A stretch of DNA of 43,434 bases from Gemmatimonadaceae bacterium (GTDB lineage Bacteria; Gemmatimonadota; Gemmatimonadetes; Gemmatimonadales; Gemmatimonadaceae). The translations under genes were made by a program, and so were the position numbers. How positions within the stretch are numbered: position 1 is the stretch's first letter; every line of letters starts with the position of its first letter. Below are positions 21,157 to 30,911 of this stretch, in pieces. The notes under the pieces are model-generated. The model searched no databases and had not been told where the DNA came from. It was given only the letters and a program-made list of their open reading frames with translations. The stretch is from assembly GCA_022843265.1 (NCBI GenBank), contig JALHNZ010000028.1, forward strand, positions 1 to 43,434. The letters run 5' to 3'.

Positions 21157-21870
21157 TTAGAACACGACGGCTTGCACGCCGATGTAGTACGTGGAGAAAT
21201 CCACGCGCGATCGGATTGGCTGAGGATCACGACGCTGCTGAACCGCGGCGCGTACTTCGTCGGCGGTAAGATACGTCACGTCATCGTGACGCAAGTAGCG
21301 CATGCCAAGGTCCAGGCGAATGGGCCGCGCGCCGTTGTGCACGCGAATGTATGCACCCGCCGCCCCGCCGTACGCCCATGCGAAGTCACTGGAGTTTGTG
21401 GTCGACGCAAACGGTTCGGTGTTGTTTGTGCCCTCAACAGCGCTGGTCGTCCAGAACGCCGAAAATCCACCGAGCGCCGACGCGTACGGGGTAAACAGTC
21501 CGGTTGGGCCGAGCAACTGCGGTCCGGTGACAAACGTGACGATGTTATTGGTGGTATTCAGATCAACGCGGATCAGATTCCCGGTCGTTGAGCTCAGCGG
21601 CACTCGCTGGCGCACGCGACCGTACGACTGAAACGCCAGATCCGCGCGCGCATTGAAGATCGCATTGGGATCGAGGCTGATCAGCACATTGCCGCTGATC
21701 CCCCAACCCCGTTCTGTGGTTTCAGCGAACGCGCCGCGCGGAATGGAAAGATTTCCGCTGGCTCCGGCGGTGACACGGACGTTCGGGTTGTCCTGCGCAT
21801 TCGCGCCGCTGAGCGCGGCCAACGAGAGCAGTGTGGAAACGGAAAGCTGGGCGATGACGCGTGTCAGCAT
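21157..21870 (-). CDS. Predicted outer-membrane beta-barrel protein
   Basis: A 237-residue secreted protein with a signal peptide ending at ANAQ (about residue 26). The rest consists of alternating polar and hydrophobic strands rich in Gly, Tyr and aromatic girdle residues (GWGISGNVLISL, ARADLAFQSYGR, ALGGFSAFWTT, DLGMRYLRHDDV), closing with VDFSTYYIGVQAVVF, whose terminal Phe is the usual signal for barrel insertion. The size fits an eight-stranded OmpA/opacity-type barrel. It is 95 bp downstream of the TolC-like gene and in the same direction, so it may be the last gene of the exporter unit. No specific function is visible. Confidence 0.75.
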   Translation of the reverse strand: MLTRVIAQLSVSTLLSLAALSGANAQDNPNVRVTAGASGNLSIPRGAFAETTERGWGISGNVLISLDPNAIFNARADLAFQSYGRVRQRVPLSSTTGNLIRVDLNTTNNIVTFVTGPQLLGPTGLFTPYASALGGFSAFWTTSAVEGTNNTEPFASTTNSSDFAWAYGGAAGAYIRVHNGARPIRLDLGMRYLRHDDVTYLTADEVRAAVQQRRDPQPIRSRVDFSTYYIGVQAVVF

Positions 21871-21965: not shown

Positions 21966-23465
21966 TCAATTCGGCCGCGCGCCGAGCGTTTCCGGAAGTG
22001 TGGTCAGATTACCTATTGCCACGGCGAGGGTGGCACGAGCTGCGGCAATACGCGCTTCGTACTGCGCCTGCCTCACTGATTCGTCCAACACCGCACGCTC
22101 GCGCAGATTCACAATCAGCAACGTGCTTTCACCGTTGGCAAATCGGGCCTGCTCGGCATCGCGGAGCAGACGCGTGCGCTCCACGTTTCGCTGTTGCAGT
22201 TCCAGCAGGCCCGCGAGCACTGTCAGTTCATTGGCTGCGATGCGCACGGCGTTGTCGACGTCCCGTCCTATGCGTTCCCGTTCAAGTCGGCGAATGTCGA
22301 GCTTCGCGCTCGCGCTCCCGAATCTTCCCCGTTCCTTGAGAAAGAGCAGTGGTGACTTGATATCGAGTGCGCCTTTGTAGTTCGACTCATTTTCGGAGCG
22401 ATCAAACACGGGCGGCGTGGTTCCGCGTTCGGAAATCGCGGACACCGTTGCTTCGGCGAACGGAATAAACTGTTGCCCCACGAGCAACCGCTGCGCCTCA
22501 GCCGCGCGCACTTCGGCTTCCAGTTTGCGCAGTTGCGGATTGCGCGAGCGCGCTTCGGCCAGCCACGTCGCCACCGCCGCCGAATCCACGGCGGGCATCG
22601 CGCCCGCTTCCAATCCGTCGAGAGACGGTCGTACGCCTTCGGCGAGTGAGATAGGCCGATCGGATCCGTCCCACAAGAACGCCGTGAGTACGAGCTCGGC
22701 GGCAAAGAAGGACGCGTCGGCTTCGCGCAACGTGACCTCCCGTCGTTGCACTTCGATCGACGCTTCAAGCGTATCGACCGCCGGACTGACGCCGGTAACA
22801 AGGCTCGCTTGCACCGCCTCCAGTCGGAACGCGGCCAGGCCAACGCCTTCACGAGCAATCTCGCGTCGGCGCCAGGCCTCGTACCACGCACCGTACGCAC
22901 GCGCGGCGTTCAGCACGAGGCTATTGATGATCGCTTCACGATCAGCTTCTCCAGCATCGCGCAGCGCACGTGCCTGCGTAAGTGCTGTGCGCCGTTCGTC
23001 GGTGAGCAGCCGCTGACCCAGAGGAATACTGAACCCCGCGGTAATCAAACCAACGTCCGGCGTCCGCCGATCGGGATTGATATATGTGCCCGCCGCGCGC
23101 TCGTATCCGATCTTGATGTCGCTGCCGATTGGCGTGGGAATCTTCACCGACACATCGGCATACGAGTAGTAACCCGTTCCATCAAACCGCTTCTGATCCC
23201 AGGTCGCGGCAACCGTGGGATCGAACGCACCCCAGGCGGTACGCAACTGACTGCGTACGTCTTCCGCCACGAGATCCGCCTGACGAGCAACGGGGTGGTT
23301 GGCGAGCACCAGCGCGATGAACGCGGCGTACGGATATGGGATGGTGTCGGCCGCGCTGCGCACCCACGAGAAGTCGTTCCCAACCGTAGACTGCGCGTGC
23401 AGCGCACGCCCGCCGCCAGCCATTACGCAGAGCACCGCGAGCAGCAGGGCACAGCGTCGGGTCAC
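21966..23465 (-). CDS. TolC-family outer-membrane efflux/export protein
   Basis: A 499-residue outer-membrane factor. A signal peptide (MTRRCALLLAVLCVMAGGG, cut near HAQ) precedes two internally similar halves rich in long amphipathic helices (YGAWYEAWRRREIAREGVGLAAF and its counterpart LELQQRNVERTRLLRDAEQARFANGES), with the LRERAVLDESVRQAQYEA pattern near the end. The GTG at 23465 is chosen because GGAGG lies six bases upstream and it overlaps the adaptor stop. The longer frame to 23594 lies inside the adaptor gene. It should form the outer channel of the type I exporter encoded with the HlyD and ABC genes. Confidence 0.9.
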   Translation of the reverse strand: MTRRCALLLAVLCVMAGGGRALHAQSTVGNDFSWVRSAADTIPYPYAAFIALVLANHPVARQADLVAEDVRSQLRTAWGAFDPTVAATWDQKRFDGTGYYSYADVSVKIPTPIGSDIKIGYERAAGTYINPDRRTPDVGLITAGFSIPLGQRLLTDERRTALTQARALRDAGEADREAIINSLVLNAARAYGAWYEAWRRREIAREGVGLAAFRLEAVQASLVTGVSPAVDTLEASIEVQRREVTLREADASFFAAELVLTAFLWDGSDRPISLAEGVRPSLDGLEAGAMPAVDSAAVATWLAEARSRNPQLRKLEAEVRAAEAQRLLVGQQFIPFAEATVSAISERGTTPPVFDRSENESNYKGALDIKSPLLFLKERGRFGSASAKLDIRRLERERIGRDVDNAVRIAANELTVLAGLLELQQRNVERTRLLRDAEQARFANGESTLLIVNLRERAVLDESVRQAQYEARIAAARATLAVAIGNLTTLPETLGARPN

Positions 23466-24826
23466 TTGTTGCCTCCACCCGACTTGCTTCCGCCCGAGGG
23501 AAGCGGCGCGCTGCGCGCGTCGGACCCACTGGCCGCACTGTTGGCATTCAACGCCGGCGGGAAGCCGTTCAGTTGGCGCCAGATCTCGAACCACACGCGC
23601 ACCGTGTCAAGCAGTGCCCAGCCATATACGCCGGAGCCCACGCGCAACTGCGCCGGCCATGGATCGTCGGTCGGATCAGGCACGACGAGTACGCGGAAGC
23701 GGCCGTCGACACTTGCAATCTTGTCGATAACCGCGACCTCGCCGCCGAACGTACCGACGGCAACACTTGGCCAACCGGAGAACTGCAGCGCCGGCCATCC
23801 GTCAAACTGCAGGCGAACTTTTCGGCCGGGCTGCAACAGTGGCACGTCCATGGCACGAACGTAAAGCTCGACCGCCTGACGGGGCGTGGCCGGCTGCACC
23901 GTAACAATCGGATCACCCGCTTTCACCAACTCGCCGACGCCTTGCACGATGGCCTTGACCACATACCCGTCCTGCGGCGCTTCAATGCGATAGTACGACT
24001 GACGGATTTCAAGCGACGCGACCTTGTTGCGCAACTTTGAAATTTCGACTTCGCCGTCGGCAACTTCAGCCAACGTGCCGGCGCGGTCCGATCGTGATTT
24101 TTCGATTTTCTCCTGAAACTCTGCGTCCAATGAGTTCAGTTCGATTTGTGCGTTGAGCAGTTCGTTCCGCCGCTGCACGAGCGCCGCAGACGCCGCCTGT
24201 GCGCGCATGCGCGCGGACTGCAGATCATTCAGCGAAACCAGCCCCAGCGGCGAGCGAAAGAGCGTATCGCGGCGCGCGAACTGATCGGACGCAATCGAAT
24301 CTTCCAATGTGAACTGCGCCACCGCCGCTTCCAGCTGTCGCACCTTGTTGCGCGTCTGCTCGACCTTGAACTTCAACGACTCGGAGAGCGCAGCAACCTG
24401 CGCGTCAAGCGCCCGTGCTTTGGCGCGCTTGTCATCGTTCGACGCACGCTTTGCTTCCAGCTGCTCCGTGGTACGCGCGATGATCTCTGGATCGAGGTAT
24501 TCATCCTTGATCTCGGAGATCTGCACAATCGGCGTTCCGCGCGCGACGAATTGGCCTTCGGATACAAACCAGCGCTCGACGCGGCCGTCGATACGCGAAG
24601 GTAGTGACTGCGGTCGGTCTGATGGACTCAGCGCGCTCACCATGCCATCCCCTTGCACGCTCTGCTGCCACGGCAAAAATGCCGCGAGAATCAGCGCGAT
24701 CAGGAGGCCGAACAGCCAACGCGCAACCGCCGAGTAGGACTGCGACTCAGACAGCAAGCGCGACGCGTTCAGCGGCATTGTCTCCATGGCGAACTGCTTG
24801 CCCTTCGACTTTGCTGGTTTTTTCAT
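23462..24826 (-). CDS. HlyD-family membrane-fusion (adaptor) protein
   Basis: Periplasmic adaptor linking the ABC exporter to the TolC-like channel, 454 residues. One inner-membrane helix lies at about 37-53 (WLFGLLIALILAAFLPW). Lipoyl half-motifs SRIDGRVERWFVSEGQFVARG and YRIEAPQDGYVVKAIVQGVGE flank a long coiled-coil hairpin (residues about 115-285). A beta-barrel domain follows (AVELYVRAMDVPLLQPGRKVRLQFDGW). The C-terminus is low complexity (SGGSKSGGGNK). Its ATG overlaps the ABC gene stop by 4 bp, and its stop overlaps the TolC-like start. Confidence 0.92.
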   Translation of the reverse strand: MKKPAKSKGKQFAMETMPLNASRLLSESQSYSAVARWLFGLLIALILAAFLPWQQSVQGDGMVSALSPSDRPQSLPSRIDGRVERWFVSEGQFVARGTPIVQISEIKDEYLDPEIIARTTEQLEAKRASNDDKRAKARALDAQVAALSESLKFKVEQTRNKVRQLEAAVAQFTLEDSIASDQFARRDTLFRSPLGLVSLNDLQSARMRAQAASAALVQRRNELLNAQIELNSLDAEFQEKIEKSRSDRAGTLAEVADGEVEISKLRNKVASLEIRQSYYRIEAPQDGYVVKAIVQGVGELVKAGDPIVTVQPATPRQAVELYVRAMDVPLLQPGRKVRLQFDGWPALQFSGWPSVAVGTFGGEVAVIDKIASVDGRFRVLVVPDPTDDPWPAQLRVGSGVYGWALLDTVRVWFEIWRQLNGFPPALNANSAASGSDARSAPLPSGGSKSGGGNK

Positions 24827-27096
24827 ACGCGCGCTCCCCTGGAGCCGCTCTCTCGCACGCCGCGCGCCATCTCACCGGTGCGCACGTGTGTCTCAAGCAG
24901 ACTCTCACAATACGGATCGTTGCGCACCTGCGAAAACGTGCCATCGGCCGCCACGGTCCCATCGCGAATGACCACGACACGATCGAACGACTCCAGCAGC
25001 ACCGGATCGTGCGAGACCGCGATGACCGTCCACTGGCGACTCGGATCCGACAGGATGGACAACAGTCGCCGACGATCTTCCGCCAACAGGTTCATGAACA
25101 AGTCGTCGAACAACACCAGACGCGGCTCACCCGCAATGCCCTGTGCAAAAAGCAGTTTCGTGGCAATGTGCGAGGGCAAAGAGCGACCGCCGTTCGTAAT
25201 GCGCGTTTCAAGCCCAAAGCGCATGTTTTGCACATCGCGCTCCAGGCCCACCAACCGAAGCGCTTCCCACACCTGCTCTTCACCGATGTGACTCCGGCCA
25301 ACGGATACGTTTTCGGCAATGGAGCCTTCAAAGAGATCGGTCAGTGACAGTACCTGCCCCACGCGCTCGCGCATGGCATCACGATCGACATCATGCATCG
25401 ACACACCGTCTACCAACAACGTGCCCTGATAATCGTCGAGCAGTCCACCGAGGAGACGCAACAGCGTACTGCGGCCGGCGCCCTTGAAACCGGTGAGCGC
25501 GACGCGTTGTCCAGGTTTGATCGTCATCGAGATATCGTGCAGTACGACCGTGCCCGTGCTGGCGTATGCATACGCAAGTTCGCGCGACTCCATCGTCATG
25601 CCGCGCGTGCTGTACGGCAGCGGCGAACGCCCCACGCTGTCTACGGGCAGATCGGTCACGTGTCCTGCCTTCTCGACCGATGTGAGAATGTCGTACACCA
25701 CACTGAGCGACAGTACCAGCTTTTCAACGCCCGCGAGCACGGTCACGACCACAAGCTCGGAGGCGACGAACTGACCCAGCGTGATCTGTCGGTTCACAAC
25801 GAGTACCGTACCAACGATGAGCAGGCCGGCGGTGATTGCCGTTTTGAACACCACAATCGCCACCGCCTGCTGCACCAGCACATTGAAGTGTTTGTTGCGA
25901 TACTTCAGGTACTTGGTGAGAATCGCATCCATTCGCGACAACGCAAGTTGCGAGCGCCCCGCAAACTTAAAGGCGTGAAACGCGCGCGCGACTTCTTCGA
26001 GCCAGTGCACAGCGCGATACTTGTACTTGCTCTCCATGATCGACGTGGCCAATCCCTTCGGGCCCGTCACCCAGAAAAGCAGCGCCAATGTCAGCACGAG
26101 CATCAACCCGACGAGCGTAAAATACGGGTGATAAAACGTGAGCAGAATGAGACCGAAAAAGATGGTCAGCAGCGCCTGCGAGGTGTCGAGCAGAAACTTG
26201 GCCAGACTCTTTTGAATTAACGCTGCTTCAAACAGTCGGTTCATACTTTCCGGCAAGTCCTCTTTCAGAAACACATCGTAGCGAACGCGCGGCAGGTGAA
26301 AGGCATACTCAAGCGCCATGCGCGCAAATACGCGTTGCTGAATTCGTTCCACAACGCCAAGCTGCAACACCTGCAATACGCCCGCGACAATCGTTCCTAC
26401 GATGACATACGCGATCAGAATCGTTGCCGACTGCAGGATCAAACCGCCCTGAATAAGCTGGACGATGGCGCCCACACTCAGTGGCAGTGTGAGCGAGAAC
26501 AGACCCGCGAGGCCCGCATAGAAGAACACCACGACGATTTCCCGTCGATCCCGCGACAACAGCTCCCATAATCGCGCCAGCGTTTGCGAACCGCTCGGCG
26601 TCGGATCAGATTCGGTGGCCGCGACCTCCTGCGCGTCGATGGTTTCCGACGCGGCGCCCGGCGTGACACTCGGGCTCAGCGCGAAGGGTGACAACGCGTA
26701 ACACTGCGGACCGAAGCGGGCCTGCACTTCCGCAGCCACCGCGTCTGGGGTTCGCGCGTCAAGCATGCGCGCTTCACCAGCACTCGGTACCAGCCACAAT
26801 GCGGCGCGCCCAGGCGCGTCTTCGGCGAGTACCAGTATGTCGCCGTCGGCCGCTGAGGCCGTCGCAACAAGCACCACCGGTGTATCGCGATCACGAACAG
26901 CGGCACCGGCGGCCACGCTTTCAATGTCGCGCGAGAGAAAGGCGATTTCAATCGACTGTCCCAAAGCAAGCAGCTGATGCGCCTGCGAGCCCGCTGGCAC
27001 GCGTCGCTCAAGGGAAATCCAGGCCGACGGATCAATATCCAAACGAAGCGCCTTTGCGAGCAGCTGCGCGGCGCGAATGGACTGAGGTACGGTCAT
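24823..27096 (-). CDS. Type I exporter-like ABC protein with a degenerate ATPase domain
   Basis: A 757-residue half-transporter of the HlyB/PrtD layout. The N-terminal cytosolic domain (1-150) resembles a peptidase-dead C39-like module. Six membrane helices span about 180-455, and the nucleotide-binding domain covers about 500-740. The NBD departs from consensus: Walker A is GFKGAGRST with Arg (codon 25471-25473) where Lys is nearly invariant, the LSGGQ region reads GGRSLPSHIATK, and Walker B is RLVLFDDLF with Asp for the catalytic Glu. The Q-loop (VGQVLSL) and H-loop (AVSHD) remain. ATP may bind weakly or hydrolyse slowly (inference). The start is the ATG at 27096; the frame upstream begins with TTG. 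The HlyD gene overlaps by 4 bp. The substrate is unknown. Confidence 0.9.
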   Translation of the reverse strand: MTVPQSIRAAQLLAKALRLDIDPSAWISLERRVPAGSQAHQLLALGQSIEIAFLSRDIESVAAGAAVRDRDTPVVLVATASAADGDILVLAEDAPGRAALWLVPSAGEARMLDARTPDAVAAEVQARFGPQCYALSPFALSPSVTPGAASETIDAQEVAATESDPTPSGSQTLARLWELLSRDRREIVVVFFYAGLAGLFSLTLPLSVGAIVQLIQGGLILQSATILIAYVIVGTIVAGVLQVLQLGVVERIQQRVFARMALEYAFHLPRVRYDVFLKEDLPESMNRLFEAALIQKSLAKFLLDTSQALLTIFFGLILLTFYHPYFTLVGLMLVLTLALLFWVTGPKGLATSIMESKYKYRAVHWLEEVARAFHAFKFAGRSQLALSRMDAILTKYLKYRNKHFNVLVQQAVAIVVFKTAITAGLLIVGTVLVVNRQITLGQFVASELVVVTVLAGVEKLVLSLSVVYDILTSVEKAGHVTDLPVDSVGRSPLPYSTRGMTMESRELAYAYASTGTVVLHDISMTIKPGQRVALTGFKGAGRSTLLRLLGGLLDDYQGTLLVDGVSMHDVDRDAMRERVGQVLSLTDLFEGSIAENVSVGRSHIGEEQVWEALRLVGLERDVQNMRFGLETRITNGGRSLPSHIATKLLFAQGIAGEPRLVLFDDLFMNLLAEDRRRLLSILSDPSRQWTVIAVSHDPVLLESFDRVVVIRDGTVAADGTFSQVRNDPYCESLLETHVRTGEMARGVRESGSRGARV

Positions 27097-27194: not shown

Positions 27195-28979
27195 TCAGGG
27201 CCGCGCTACTGCATCGTGACTGGCCACTGCTGATGCCGTGACGGGTGCGCCGGCCGGATCCCTCCACACGCGGCGGGAGACAATGTGCACCGACCCCGCA
27301 CTCACTCGCATGCCGGTCATCTGTTCGACGTTCGAGTTCACCGACGCGCCGACTTGCAGGGCCGGCTGCACGTCTCCCGCCGGTACCGTCACACGCGTGA
27401 GCACAAGTCGGCCCGGGAGCAGGTGCCACCCCCGCGTATCCGCGCGCTCGATGGCCGACACGAACAGGCCCGCAAGCATGCCCGCCGCTTCGCCGTGCTT
27501 GTCACGCACCGCCTCGACCGCGGCCACACGCGTGATGGTGCGCGCCGTCAGGCGAGCCAGCCGAGGGCCGCGCAACCGACGCGCATCGGCGGCGACAGCG
27601 TCACTGAGGAGCGCACTGTTTGTGTGCTGCGCATTTACCGACACGGCCTGTTGCCATTCGCCGCTGTCGGATGAATCGCGGCGAACACGTGCGACGCCGC
27701 GTAGCGAAAACAGCGCAGCCGCTTCTGGCAGGCGCGACCGGACAAGGCTGGGCCATTCGATCTGAATCCAGTGGCCACTATGCTGACGGTTCCCGAGATA
27801 CCGAGTGCTCGGGACGCGCCGGGGCGTCCAGTCAGCAGCGGCACTGAGGGGTGCGTCAGCATGCGCGATGCCCCGCGTCGTTTCATCGGGCGACGCATCG
27901 GCGAACACCCCGCCGTCGGGAAGCGCATCGAGCGCTGCAAGCCACGCCGCCGTGCGCGAGGACGTATCAACCGAGTTCCGCTCGCTTGAATCCGCTGGAG
28001 CACCAACCGCGACACGAGCCTGTCGCGGCATCGGAATGCGGCCCGGCGCACGCGTTGGAGTTTCCCGGGCGCCACCAGCGCGCACCGTACGCGAAATGGA
28101 TGGTGACACCGCTGCCGTCGATGTATCGTTGAACGGGTTGCGCGCCGACGCCTTGCCAACGGTCTCGATCTCATCAGCGAACGTTCCGCGCGACCGACGC
28201 GAGCTCCCCGCCGATTCCAGCGGGATGGCAATCTCCTGCGATACGTAGTGCGCCACAAATCCGCTCTCCATGACCAGCAACACGGTGGCGCTATCGCCAA
28301 GTGGACGTGTGACTTCGATGGAGTCGACGGCGGCGCGCGACGCACCTCGCAGCAGCGCGCTGTTGCGATACGCCACACTTGCGTCGTTCCATTCGCCAGC
28401 GGCTTCGAACACCGCGCCCGCGACATCGCGCAGCGCGGCGTGCGTGGCGCGTTCCGACGCATCGACATCACCCGCCCATTGTTCGAGCAGCGTGGACAGG
28501 CGACGCGCATCGACCGCCGCTCCGTCGATGTCCCCCGACTGGACACGGGCCATCATGGCGTAGTAGCGCATGAACAGCCGTTCCGTGCGCGGTGGGACGT
28601 AGCGCAGCGCGTGATCATTGGTGATGACCGCGAGCACGCCGCGCGACGCGCTCTTGGTGTAGCGCTGCTCCGTGAGCTGCTCGGCCTCGGCAAATGCCAA
28701 CGCCGCGTCTTCGTACCGGCCAGCATAGTACGCCGACTGCCCGCGAAAGAGTGCGCGAAGCAGGGCGTCTCGTGGCGCACCATCGCGCCCCTCGAGCGTG
28801 CGGTCATATGCTTGTTCAAAGGTGCCCAGCACCAGCGCGCGCCGGATCAACTCCTCGCCCCAGGGAAGCCCACTGGGCGCCACGCTCGATACATGTGAGG
28901 GACCGCGCCCCAACGCATTGCAGCCACTCAACGCGAACGCGGTGAGTGACAGCAACACGATAGACAGGGAACGACGCAT
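27195..28979 (-). CDS. COG3014-like lipoprotein
   Basis: A 594-residue lipoprotein (lipobox ALSGC, Cys20) whose first half is helical and TPR-like (YYAGRYEDAALAFAEAEQLTE, TNDHALRYVPPRTERLFMRYYAMMARVQSGD), as in the COG3014 lipoproteins that accompany LpoB genes in many proteobacteria. A disordered Arg/Ser/Pro-rich linker (about 270-400) follows. A C-terminal part (about 410-560, including RTITRVAAVEAVRDKHG and WHLLPGRLVLTRVTVPAG) matches the second half of that family. The function is unknown; a role in envelope or peptidoglycan assembly is inferred from the company of LpoB. It starts 32 bp after the BamE-like/TPR gene and ends 98 bp before the ABC gene. Confidence 0.72.
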   Translation of the reverse strand: MRRSLSIVLLSLTAFALSGCNALGRGPSHVSSVAPSGLPWGEELIRRALVLGTFEQAYDRTLEGRDGAPRDALLRALFRGQSAYYAGRYEDAALAFAEAEQLTEQRYTKSASRGVLAVITNDHALRYVPPRTERLFMRYYAMMARVQSGDIDGAAVDARRLSTLLEQWAGDVDASERATHAALRDVAGAVFEAAGEWNDASVAYRNSALLRGASRAAVDSIEVTRPLGDSATVLLVMESGFVAHYVSQEIAIPLESAGSSRRSRGTFADEIETVGKASARNPFNDTSTAAVSPSISRTVRAGGARETPTRAPGRIPMPRQARVAVGAPADSSERNSVDTSSRTAAWLAALDALPDGGVFADASPDETTRGIAHADAPLSAAADWTPRRVPSTRYLGNRQHSGHWIQIEWPSLVRSRLPEAAALFSLRGVARVRRDSSDSGEWQQAVSVNAQHTNSALLSDAVAADARRLRGPRLARLTARTITRVAAVEAVRDKHGEAAGMLAGLFVSAIERADTRGWHLLPGRLVLTRVTVPAGDVQPALQVGASVNSNVEQMTGMRVSAGSVHIVSRRVWRDPAGAPVTASAVASHDAVARP

Positions 28980-29011
28980 GTCAGGCTCTGGAGAAGACGG
29001 AAGTAATCAGA

Positions 29012-29851
29012 TCAACGACTGCGACGGTCGAGCACCACAATGCGCTGCTGCGCCAGGGCGATGGCTTCGGCCAGCTTCGCGTTTTGCGTGCCAACGGCAT
29101 CAATGCGCTGCAGCTCAAGCGAGAGCAGAAACTTCTGGTAGCGCATCAGCGCCTCAACCGGGCGTAGCTGCTGATCGAGCAACTGCGCGACCTTGTAGTT
29201 GAGCAGCGCGTCGTCAGGCGAAAGCACCAGCGCGCGATCGTACCGTTCAAGTGCACGGGTGCGATCACCGGCGGCGACAAAATCATCACCTTCGCGAACG
29301 ATTGCATCCGCGAGTGCCTGCGATCGTGCGGCGCGCGTGGTGTCTGCCGGTCGACTTTCCACACGCAGCCCGGTGCGGTCGCGACGGGCCACGCTTGACA
29401 CACGATCGCCATCGAACTGCACGATCGCCAACTCTCCCTGCGCATCCGCCGGCACCGCGTCAAGCGACGCGGGTGTCATAGTGGCGCTGCCGGCCGTACG
29501 CCGCACACTCCACGCATCCGGCGCAGAACGCGACGCCGCCATGACCTGTGCGCTGGTCATGCCGAGGGTCACCTCACCGCGTCCGATAGCGTCGCAAATC
29601 GAGGGTGCACAATTCGCCGTCGCCGCTGAGGTCAGCGAATCGTGTTGTGCCTGACGTTCGGCACGCGCGCTGATCTCGCGGGCTTGCGCATTGGCAATGG
29701 CCGCATCGGCCATCTGCACGCGATCTCCAGTCACCAGAATCGGAACTTCCTGCACCACACGCGGGCCATTGCAGCCAGCGAGGAACGCCGCAGCCACGAG
29801 CGCGGCGCACGCGAACAGACGATGAGTCTGAATCATTGGAATAAGAGGCAT
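29012..29851 (-). CDS. Lipoprotein with BamE-like and TPR segments
   Basis: A 279-residue lipoprotein (lipobox LAGC, Cys27). Residues about 85-165 resemble a BamE/SmpA fold: the helix GEVTLGMTSAQVMAASRSAPDA, then a strand with conserved W and a closing strand ELAIVQFDGDRVSSV. Residues about 185-250 look like tetratricopeptide helices (DDFVAAGDRTRALERYDRALVLSPDDALLNYKVAQLL). BamE proteins help outer-membrane protein assembly; whether this one does is unknown. The ATG at 29851 has GGAG seven bases upstream, and the longer frame to 29914 is rejected. It follows lpoB by 10 bp. The BamE resemblance is by eye and should be treated as moderate. Confidence 0.65.
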   Translation of the reverse strand: MPLIPMIQTHRLFACAALVAAAFLAGCNGPRVVQEVPILVTGDRVQMADAAIANAQAREISARAERQAQHDSLTSAATANCAPSICDAIGRGEVTLGMTSAQVMAASRSAPDAWSVRRTAGSATMTPASLDAVPADAQGELAIVQFDGDRVSSVARRDRTGLRVESRPADTTRAARSQALADAIVREGDDFVAAGDRTRALERYDRALVLSPDDALLNYKVAQLLDQQLRPVEALMRYQKFLLSLELQRIDAVGTQNAKLAEAIALAQQRIVVLDRRSR

Positions 29852-29861
29852 GGGGTTTCTC

Positions 29862-30470
29862 CTACCAGCCGATGCGGCGGCGATCGACGTACTTCTTGAT
29901 CTTGTGCTGACCAACCCAGACCTTCGCGTTGGTTTCGAGATTCACCAGAGTCGCGTCGATCTGGTACGTGACCACCCGCTCGCGACCTTGCGCGTCTTCG
30001 ATGGCCTGTACATCACCCTGCAGCATGAACTGGGCGCCCTGCTCCATGGCCAGCTTCGCGCGTGATTCAGCGACCGCGTTCATCTGCTGGTCAGCACGTT
30101 CCGCGCGCACTTCGCCGCGCTCATCCACGCTGGCGACGACACGAACCGCGCCCGTAGTGACGTAGGCGCGCTCGAGATCCCGTGTGAAGGTCTGCACCGG
30201 GATGTGTTCGAGCGTACGGTTCCGAAACGCACCCACAATCACGGTGGGTGTCTTGCCACCGTTGGCCGCGCTGAACTGCGTGGCCCAGGTGGCGTCAATC
30301 GACTGCGTAATGAGCGCGTTGGCGACGAGGCGCGAATCGGCGTCGTTCCACCGACCCGACAGGTCGGTCACGGACTCCGGATCGATACGGGCCACGCGCG
30401 TACTTCCGCATGCCGCGAGCGTAAGGACAGCCGCAACCAACGCGACAGCACGAACTGTGAGGGAACGCAT
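29862..30470 (-). CDS. lpoB: Penicillin-binding protein activator LpoB-like lipoprotein
   Basis: A 202-residue outer-membrane lipoprotein (lipobox LAAC, Cys21). After a short linker comes the family domain: VTDLSGRWNDADSRLVANALITQS, TPTVIVGAFRNRTLEHIPVQTFTRDLERAYVTTGAVRVV and QGAQFMLQGDVQAIEDA are hallmark segments. In E. coli LpoB reaches through the peptidoglycan to stimulate PBP1B. Here the partner is not known. The start at 30470 has AGGAG six bases upstream; the much longer open frame to 30857 is rejected. It heads a leftward set with two further lipoproteins and probably an exporter. Confidence 0.87.
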   Translation of the reverse strand: MRSLTVRAVALVAAVLTLAACGSTRVARIDPESVTDLSGRWNDADSRLVANALITQSIDATWATQFSAANGGKTPTVIVGAFRNRTLEHIPVQTFTRDLERAYVTTGAVRVVASVDERGEVRAERADQQMNAVAESRAKLAMEQGAQFMLQGDVQAIEDAQGRERVVTYQIDATLVNLETNAKVWVGQHKIKKYVDRRRIGW

Positions 30471-30683
30471 GAAACACTCCTGAAACTGATTCGGGGGACG
30501 GTGGTGTGCATCCGTATCCAATGCAGACCTTGCGCCAGCGGGCTGAAACGCGGCTAACTGCTTGCCTTGCAAGGTGTTTCGGTGATGTCGATCACCCGGA
30601 GCGTCCCGCGCGCGGGACGATGGCACGTCGCCTTTTGAGGACAATGAGCTGCCAGAGTCTCCTTCGCTCGGTAACTTGCGAGC
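30471..30683. promoter_or_regulatory. Divergent promoter region, lpoB versus zinc-ribbon/CHAD genes
   Basis: 213 bp between divergent starts. It should hold promoters for both the leftward lipoprotein set and the rightward signalling set. I see no clear -35/-10 pair and no riboswitch-like fold. Confidence 0.4.
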
Positions 30684-30911
30684 ATGGATGACGAAGACTT
30701 TTCCCTGGGCGACGGCGTGGCCGATGACACCAGCCTTGTGTACTGCGCCTACTGCGGTGAGCCCAACGAGATCGCGCTGGATCCCGGTTCGGGGTCCGTT
30801 CAGGAATACATCGAAGATTGCCAGGTCTGCTGCCAACCGTGGTTGGTCGTCGTCCACTATATGCCTGACGGATCTGCTCAGGTGACCGTGTCAGCCGCAG
30901 ACGGCGATTAA
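30684..30911 (+). CDS. CPXCG-motif cysteine-rich small protein
   Basis: A 75-residue acidic protein with a zinc-ribbon core: YCAYCGEPNEI (C-x2-C) and DCQVCCQPW (C-x2-C) about 25 residues later, with an acidic start (MDDEDFSLGD). This fits the small 'CPXCG motif' cysteine-rich family (about 60-70 residues) of unknown function, often found in proteobacteria. The zinc binding is inferred from the four spaced cysteines; a fifth Cys lies beside the second pair. It precedes the CHAD-CYTH gene by 21 bp and is likely co-transcribed with it. Confidence 0.82.
   Translation: MDDEDFSLGDGVADDTSLVYCAYCGEPNEIALDPGSGSVQEYIEDCQVCCQPWLVVVHYMPDGSAQVTVSAADGD

What the first reader, a model, noticed from the sequence alone, without database searches (positions are those of the whole stretch)
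24823..27096. Type I exporter ABC protein with three catalytic ATPase motifs altered
The sequence shows Walker A GFKGAGRST (Arg for Lys), no LSGGQ (the region reads GGRSLPSHIATK) and FDD in place of the DE pair at Walker B, while the Q- and H-loops and all six membrane helices remain. HlyB/PrtD-type exporters normally work as homodimers that need these residues. Either export here is driven in another way, or the domain is a regulated or partner subunit of another ABC protein. The reading frame is intact and tightly coupled to HlyD and TolC genes, so it does not look like a decaying gene.
Basis: partly seen in the sequence, partly recalled or inferred. Interest (0 to 1): 0.72.

Follow-up and report, generated by a model that had tools for sequence, protein, structure and literature searches.

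The report
ABC exporter family without working ATPase
This gene belongs to a widespread, conserved family of bacterial export pumps descended from ATP-driven ABC transporters whose ATP-burning half is broken in every close relative and completely missing in some, so the pump probably runs on another energy source or acts as a passive or structural part of the export channel.

Summary
In the protein at 24823-27096 (-) the Walker A Lys is Arg542, LSGGQ is LPSHI and the catalytic Glu is Asp665. It is neither an error nor decay. It is one member of a family of ABC-HlyD-TolC cassettes in Gemmatimonadaceae and Bacteroidota, with a more eroded arm in Sphingomonadales. None of 83 aligned NBD-bearing members has LSGGQ; two basal ones have LSTGQ. 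Gemmatimonadaceae have lost the Walker A Lys (26 of 27). Bacteroidota keep it but mostly lose the Glu and the H-loop. In 28 sampled Bacteroidota genomes the NBD is gone: a short membrane-domain protein runs straight into HlyD. The usual conservation pattern is inverted: TMD exceeds NBD in 96% of family pairs, against NBD over TMD in 99.8% of canonical pairs. No partner ATPase is encoded nearby. Members share charged TMD residues that canonical exporters lack (e.g. Glu447). Best reading: an ATP-hydrolysis-independent tripartite exporter built on an ABC membrane domain, possibly proton-driven. SbmA and NBD-less MsbA are precedents for the principle. The energy source and the substrate are inferred, not shown.

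The parts
24823..27096 (-). ATPase-dead ABC exporter protein (757 aa): C39-like N-domain, TMD, vestigial NBD
26677..27096 (-). N-terminal C39-like domain (residues 1-140), no peptidase motif seen; the least conserved part
   Evidence: model pLDDT about 80, full-length Foldseek match to HlyB/PCAT1; rough dN/dS 0.24-0.41 against two congeners
25642..26592 (-). transmembrane domain (residues 169-485), six helices; conserved charged residues E250, K296, K359, H403, E447, E458, K459
25756..25776 (-). TM6 family hallmark GQFVASE (residues 441-447); Glu447 in all aligned members (one Asp), 0/29 canonical exporters
24922..25599 (-). vestigial nucleotide-binding domain (residues 500-725)
25465..25491 (-). 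Walker A GFKGAGRST; Lys to Arg542 at 25471-25473
25330..25362 (-). Q-loop region VGQVLSLTDLF; conserved Gln is Ser584
25165..25179 (-). signature position LSGGQ reads LPSHI
25102..25119 (-). Walker B LVLFDD; catalytic Glu is Asp665
25003..25020 (-). H-loop AVSHDP, His696 kept
23462..24826 (-). HlyD-type periplasmic adaptor; start overlaps the ABC stop (ATGA)
21966..23594 (-). TolC-type outer membrane factor (true start probably inside this ORF)
   Evidence: PF02321

Best explanation
The gene encodes the inner-membrane component of a conserved tripartite (ABC-derived protein + HlyD + TolC) exporter that no longer uses ATP hydrolysis. The membrane domain, presumably a homodimer, is the working part. 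The NBD is a remnant that has lost the signature motif, the catalytic Glu and the Q-loop, and in this lineage also the Walker A Lys; it may still serve as a structural dimer clamp. Transport through the membrane domain into the HlyD-TolC duct is most likely driven by the proton gradient, using charged residues that the family conserves and ordinary exporters lack. Shown here: motif loss across the family, complete NBD loss in one clade, inverted conservation, an intact cassette and no local partner ATPase. Inferred: homodimer, ATP-independence in vivo, proton coupling, direction of transport. The claim 'ATPase-dead and NBD dispensable' is about 0.85 likely; the full statement with proton drive is about 0.45.
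For: Motif table: Walker A Lys in 1/27 Gemmatimonadaceae, 47/47 Bacteroidota core, 29/29 canonical; signature Gly-Gly in none of the core; catalytic Glu in 5/27 and 3/47; H-loop His in 27/27 and mostly lost in Bacteroidota, so each lineage broke the site differently. NBD-less members: 4 of 76 Bacteroidota hits, then 25 of 100 hits in one family, Hymenobacteraceae (including one of the four). All are followed directly by HlyD, all have only one family match per genome, and rough dN/dS is 0.04-0.30. Conservation: family TMD identity 0.46 vs NBD 0.33, with NBD above TMD in 4% of pairs; canonical 0.27 vs 0.50 and 99.8%. Cassette in 62 of 66 loci; only 3 other NBD ORFs in those loci, two LolD-like and one UvrA-sized. 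Charged TMD residues E250, K296, K359, H403, E447, E458, K459 near-invariant in the core (74 rows) and rare in 29 canonical exporters; Glu447 and Lys296/Lys359 invariant across NBD-less, Sphingomonadales and basal members. Precedents from papers: SbmA-type transporters arose from ABC proteins that lost the NBD and are proton-driven through a glutamate ladder (PMC13316013); NBD-less MsbA transports drugs with a pH gradient (PMC4979069).
Against: No energetics or transport was measured. The NBD is still under purifying selection and keeps Tyr, Asp664 and His696 in Gemmatimonadaceae and the Walker A Lys in Bacteroidota, so nucleotide binding may still matter there. Conserved charges may bind substrate or HlyD rather than protons. 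SbmA shows no detectable sequence relation. An ATPase encoded elsewhere in the genome cannot be excluded by sequence. Two basal members have LSTGQ with Lys, Glu and His and could be active.
Confidence: 0.45

Rival explanations
1. Scaffold or passive valve: the membrane domain has stopped pumping and only anchors HlyD and opens the HlyD-TolC duct, so that substrates reach it from the periplasm or move down their own gradient or folding energy.
For: HlyD and TolC are conserved next to every form of the protein, including NBD-less ones; loss of the whole ATPase is tolerated.
Against: Strong conservation of charged TMD residues and of coupling-helix residues is more than an anchor would need; a single-pass HlyD helix would suffice as an anchor.
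Confidence: 0.22
2. ATP-binding switch: the NBDs still bind nucleotide and clamp or gate the homodimer (CFTR- or SUR-like gating) without a power stroke from hydrolysis.
For: Walker A Lys kept in 47/47 core Bacteroidota members; A-loop Tyr, Walker B Asp and H-loop His kept in 27/27 Gemmatimonadaceae; NBD dN/dS about 0.15.
Against: The window lineage lacks the Walker A Lys and the signature; NBD-less members manage without any NBD.
Confidence: 0.17
3. Degenerate half of a heterodimer whose canonical partner (or stand-alone NBD) is encoded elsewhere and supplies ATP hydrolysis.
For: Degenerate NBDs are common in heterodimeric exporters, including an Arg at the Walker A Lys in ABCG5/G8 (PMC7756269).
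Against: No partner in the cassette in 66 loci; one family copy in nearly all genomes; closest paralogue in the own genome only 23% identical; with both half-sites of the same NBD broken neither composite site would be canonical.
Confidence: 0.12
4. Pseudogene or sequencing error.
For: Several catalytic motifs are lost.
Against: Same changes in independent genomes; intact frames; purifying selection.
Confidence: 0.02

Closest known systems
HlyB-type T1SS ABC exporter (HlyB/PrtD/LssB; PCAT relatives)
   Same: C39-like N-domain, TMD-NBD order, HlyD and TolC partners; best full-length structural match is HlyB
   Different: ATPase motifs lost across the family; some members lack the NBD; NCBIfam type I models hit far below their cut-offs; no RTX substrate gene seen next to it
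SLiPT transporters (SbmA/BacA)
   Same: ABC-exporter TMD that lost its NBD; conserved acidic residues in the TMD
   Different: No detectable sequence relation; here HlyD and TolC partners and presumed export; SLiPTs lack the coupling helices, whereas the coupling helix 2 region is largely kept here
Heterodimeric exporters with a degenerate site (TM287/288, TmrAB, TAP; ABCG5/G8, Pdr5)
   Same: Asp for the catalytic Glu, altered signature, Lys to Arg
   Different: There one composite site stays canonical; here no partner is seen and the protein breaks both half-sites
NBD-less MsbA (MsbA-MD) and LmrA-MD (laboratory truncations)
   Same: Exporter TMD working without NBD, driven by a proton gradient (PMC4979069)
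   Different: Artificial truncations; here NBD loss occurred in nature and is maintained

Membership tests
T1SS ABC exporter (HlyB/PrtD/LssB) | TMD-NBD half transporter in an operon with HlyD and TolC | tested here: met
T1SS ABC exporter (HlyB/PrtD/LssB) | catalytically competent NBD (Walker A Lys, LSGGQ, Walker B Glu) | tested here: not met
T1SS ABC exporter (HlyB/PrtD/LssB) | score over a curated type I model (TIGR03375/01846/01842) | tested here: not met
   169, 159 and 145 bits against cut-offs 693, 726 and 510
T1SS ABC exporter (HlyB/PrtD/LssB) | C39 or C39-like N-domain | tested here: inconclusive
   full-length Foldseek match to HlyB and PCAT1; domain not folded alone; many family members lack it
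SLiPT (SbmA/BacA) | ABC-like TMD without NBD | tested here: not met
   the window protein keeps a vestigial NBD; only one clade of the family is NBD-less
SLiPT (SbmA/BacA) | sequence homology to SbmA | tested here: not met
   hhalign probability 0.4%
SLiPT (SbmA/BacA) | proton-coupled transport | not testable with these tools
   needs reconstitution
Heterodimeric exporter with one degenerate site | paralogous partner encoded alongside | tested here: not met
Heterodimeric exporter with one degenerate site | second composite site canonical | tested here: not met
   signature, Walker A and Walker B all altered in the same NBD, so no partner could complete either site (site anatomy from PMC7756269)
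ABC-dead/HlyD/TolC family described here | TMD with GQ[FL]VA[AS]E, NRFFD/NRLFE and QK motifs, next to HlyD and TolC | tested here: met

The most novel reading that the evidence does not exclude
A natural lineage in which an ATP-driven ABC exporter became an ATP-independent, proton-driven tripartite export pump, with every step still visible: near-canonical basal members, signature loss, Walker A or H-loop loss, and complete deletion of the NBD. This would be a second ABC-to-secondary-transporter conversion besides SbmA, and the first in an envelope-spanning export system.
Probability: 0.4. Interest if true: 0.87.

Novelty: new variant of a known kind. Interest (0 to 1): 0.7.

Why it matters
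ABC exporters are defined by ATP hydrolysis. Here is a common family (about a quarter of sampled Bacteroidota genomes, plus Gemmatimonadaceae and Sphingomonadales) annotated as 'ABC transporter ATP-binding protein' that cannot hydrolyse ATP in the known way, with natural NBD-less forms. It offers a graded evolutionary series for testing whether exporter membrane domains can run on ion gradients, a question raised by MsbA-MD and LmrA-MD, and it warns against annotating T1SS from HlyD/TolC neighbours alone.

Tried and rejected
Sequencing error or pseudogene: rejected. Lys538 of GFKGAGR standing in for the lost Lys: rejected, not conserved even in the genus (Gln in L033). Operon-encoded partner ATPase: a first neighbour scan had a filter mistake (a LolD-like protein had entered the reference set); repeated correctly, 3 unrelated NBD ORFs in 66 loci. 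SbmA homology: none by profile; the SbmA glutamate positions could not be mapped. Close relatives on plasmids: only Bacteroidota at strict E-values, Sphingomonadales only with the NBD-less query. Literature: keyword searches found no description of this family; only open-licence papers are held, so an earlier description may exist. The careful tree did not finish; the quick tree is used, so deep branching (the place of L154/L155, L098/L099) is unsure. Charge positions in the membrane are inferred from a model with low confidence at 317-333 and 437-450. Substrate: neighbours differ between lineages and gave no clue.

Full report
WHAT IS THERE. The ORF at 24823-27096 (-) encodes a 757-residue protein with PF00664 (ABC membrane region, 188-446) and PF00005 (ABC ATPase, 519-665). 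A HlyD-type adaptor (23462-24826) overlaps its stop codon by four bases and a TolC-type protein follows. A model built from 15 family sequences (mean pLDDT 74, pTM 0.70) has a small alpha/beta N-domain (1-140), six long helices (184-481) and an NBD. The best full-length Foldseek match is HlyB of the hemolysin secretion complex, next the peptidase exporter PCAT1; by VIA-align the TMD-NBD part aligns with type IV exporters at Z about 30.

CHECK OF THE MOTIFS. Against 29 canonical exporters aligned in the same run, the window protein has Arg542 for the Walker A Lys, Ser584 for the Q-loop Gln, LPSHI (640-644) for LSGGQ, and Asp665 for the catalytic Glu; Asp664, His696 and the A-loop Tyr are kept.

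THE FAMILY. Searches of 298 Gemmatimonadota genomes gave strong hits in 33 Gemmatimonadaceae and 2 genomes of another family of the class. A named-genome scan found Gemmatimonadaceae, Cytophagales and Chitinophaga, and 76 of 296 sampled Bacteroidota genomes have a member. Nearly all genomes have one copy. The cassette ABC-HlyD-TolC is present in 62 of 66 loci examined; of the four without both partners, L062 and L152 are truncated or short contigs, and L075 and L159 were not resolved. In L066 and L076 the order is HlyD-TolC-ABC. In several Bacteroidota a TetR-like regulator lies upstream.

EROSION OF THE ATPASE. Counts: among 27 Gemmatimonadaceae, Walker A Lys 1 (R 13, E 6, Q 5, S 2), catalytic Glu 5, H-loop His 27, A-loop Tyr 27. 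Among 47 core Bacteroidota, Walker A Lys 47, catalytic Glu 3, H-loop His a small minority at most. In neither group does any member have the signature Gly-Gly. Thus each lineage broke the site in its own way on top of a shared loss of the signature. Among seven basal Bacteroidota members, two have LSTGQ with Lys, Glu and His, though not the Q-loop Gln; these may still work. In Sphingomonadales plasmid copies (L220-L223) the Walker A and B motifs are gone too and in the two tested Pfam no longer sees the ATPase domain.

COMPLETE LOSS. Four genomes matched only residues 161-488. Their ORFs are 333-339 aa, end just after TM6, and run into HlyD within a few to 40 bases, followed by TolC; no NBD lies in the flanks. 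In the taxonomic family of one of them (it includes Adhaeribacter, i.e. Hymenobacteraceae), 25 of 120 genomes carry the NBD-less form (71-88% identical to the query), 75 an NBD-bearing form and 20 none, one match per genome; all 25 are followed by HlyD. In the quick TMD tree the four tested NBD-less members form one clade (SH-aLRT 99), Gemmatimonadaceae another (99), and all family members separate from the canonical set (98) (quick search, long branches among the outgroup, so deep order is unsure).

SELECTION. Over 3,403 family pairs mean identity is 0.46 in the TMD and 0.33 in the NBD, and the NBD is the more similar part in 4% of pairs. Over 406 canonical pairs the figures are 0.27, 0.50 and 99.8%. 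So the usual ABC pattern is inverted. Against two congeners, NG86 dN/dS is 0.03-0.08 (TMD), 0.14-0.15 (NBD), 0.24-0.41 (N-domain), with dS 1.1-2.1, near saturation, so these are rough. NBD-less pairs give 0.04-0.30. Neither part is a pseudogene; the remnant NBD is still under some constraint.

THE MEMBRANE DOMAIN. In 74 core members Glu250, Lys296, Lys359, His403, Glu447, Glu458 and Lys459 are (nearly) invariant, against 0-17% of the same charge class in canonical exporters. Across a deliberately broad set (NBD-less, Sphingomonadales, basal) Lys296, Lys359 and Glu447 stay invariant. Glu447 lies in the TM6 hallmark GQxVA[AS]E. Placement in the bilayer is inferred.

HOW IT PROBABLY WORKS. Step 1 (shown by sequence): ATP hydrolysis in the canonical way is not expected of this protein, and the NBD is dispensable in part of the family. 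Step 2 (strong inference): a partner does not supply it. [quoted passage not shown] Step 3 (inference): the TMD is still the working part. Step 4 (speculative, about one half): proton drive. Precedents: SLiPTs such as SbmA arose from ABC exporters by NBD loss and use a glutamate ladder (PMC13316013), and NBD-less MsbA moves drugs with a pH gradient (PMC4979069). SbmA itself is not detectably related by sequence, so this would be a separate conversion.

NOVELTY. Degenerate ABC sites and one NBD-less family are known. A natural, graded, multi-phylum series from near-canonical to NBD-less exporters tied to HlyD/TolC was not found in the papers searched. I rate it a new variant of a known kind.

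Noticed in passing
L220 5929-10154, L221 3958-8156, L222 6001-10218, L223 6001-10194: Sphingomonadales plasmids carry ABC-like TMD + HlyD + TolC cassettes whose C-terminal half has lost Walker A, Walker B and signature; annotated as 'ABC transporter transmembrane domain-containing protein' or 'ATP-binding protein'.
   Followed up: partly
L148-L151 and L190-L214: NBD-less versions (333-339 aa in the first four) directly upstream of HlyD in Bacteroidota; the one in L151 lies beside CzcA/CzcB-like metal efflux genes.
   Followed up: yes
L154 6638-8380 (-), L155 6777-8522 (-): Basal members with LSTGQ, Walker A Lys, catalytic Glu and H-loop His but no Q-loop Gln: possible still-active relatives or intermediates.
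   Followed up: partly
window 27195-30857 (-): Upstream of the cassette: a 594-aa putative lipoprotein without Pfam match, a TPR lipoprotein and an LpoB-like protein (PF13036), conserved together within the genus.
   Followed up: no
window 21157-21870 (-): A 237-aa outer-membrane-barrel-like protein follows TolC in many Gemmatimonadaceae cassettes (cluster c5); role unknown.
   Followed up: no
L165 and L166 (same genome): One Bacteroidota genome has two complete copies of the cassette; almost all others have one.
   Followed up: no
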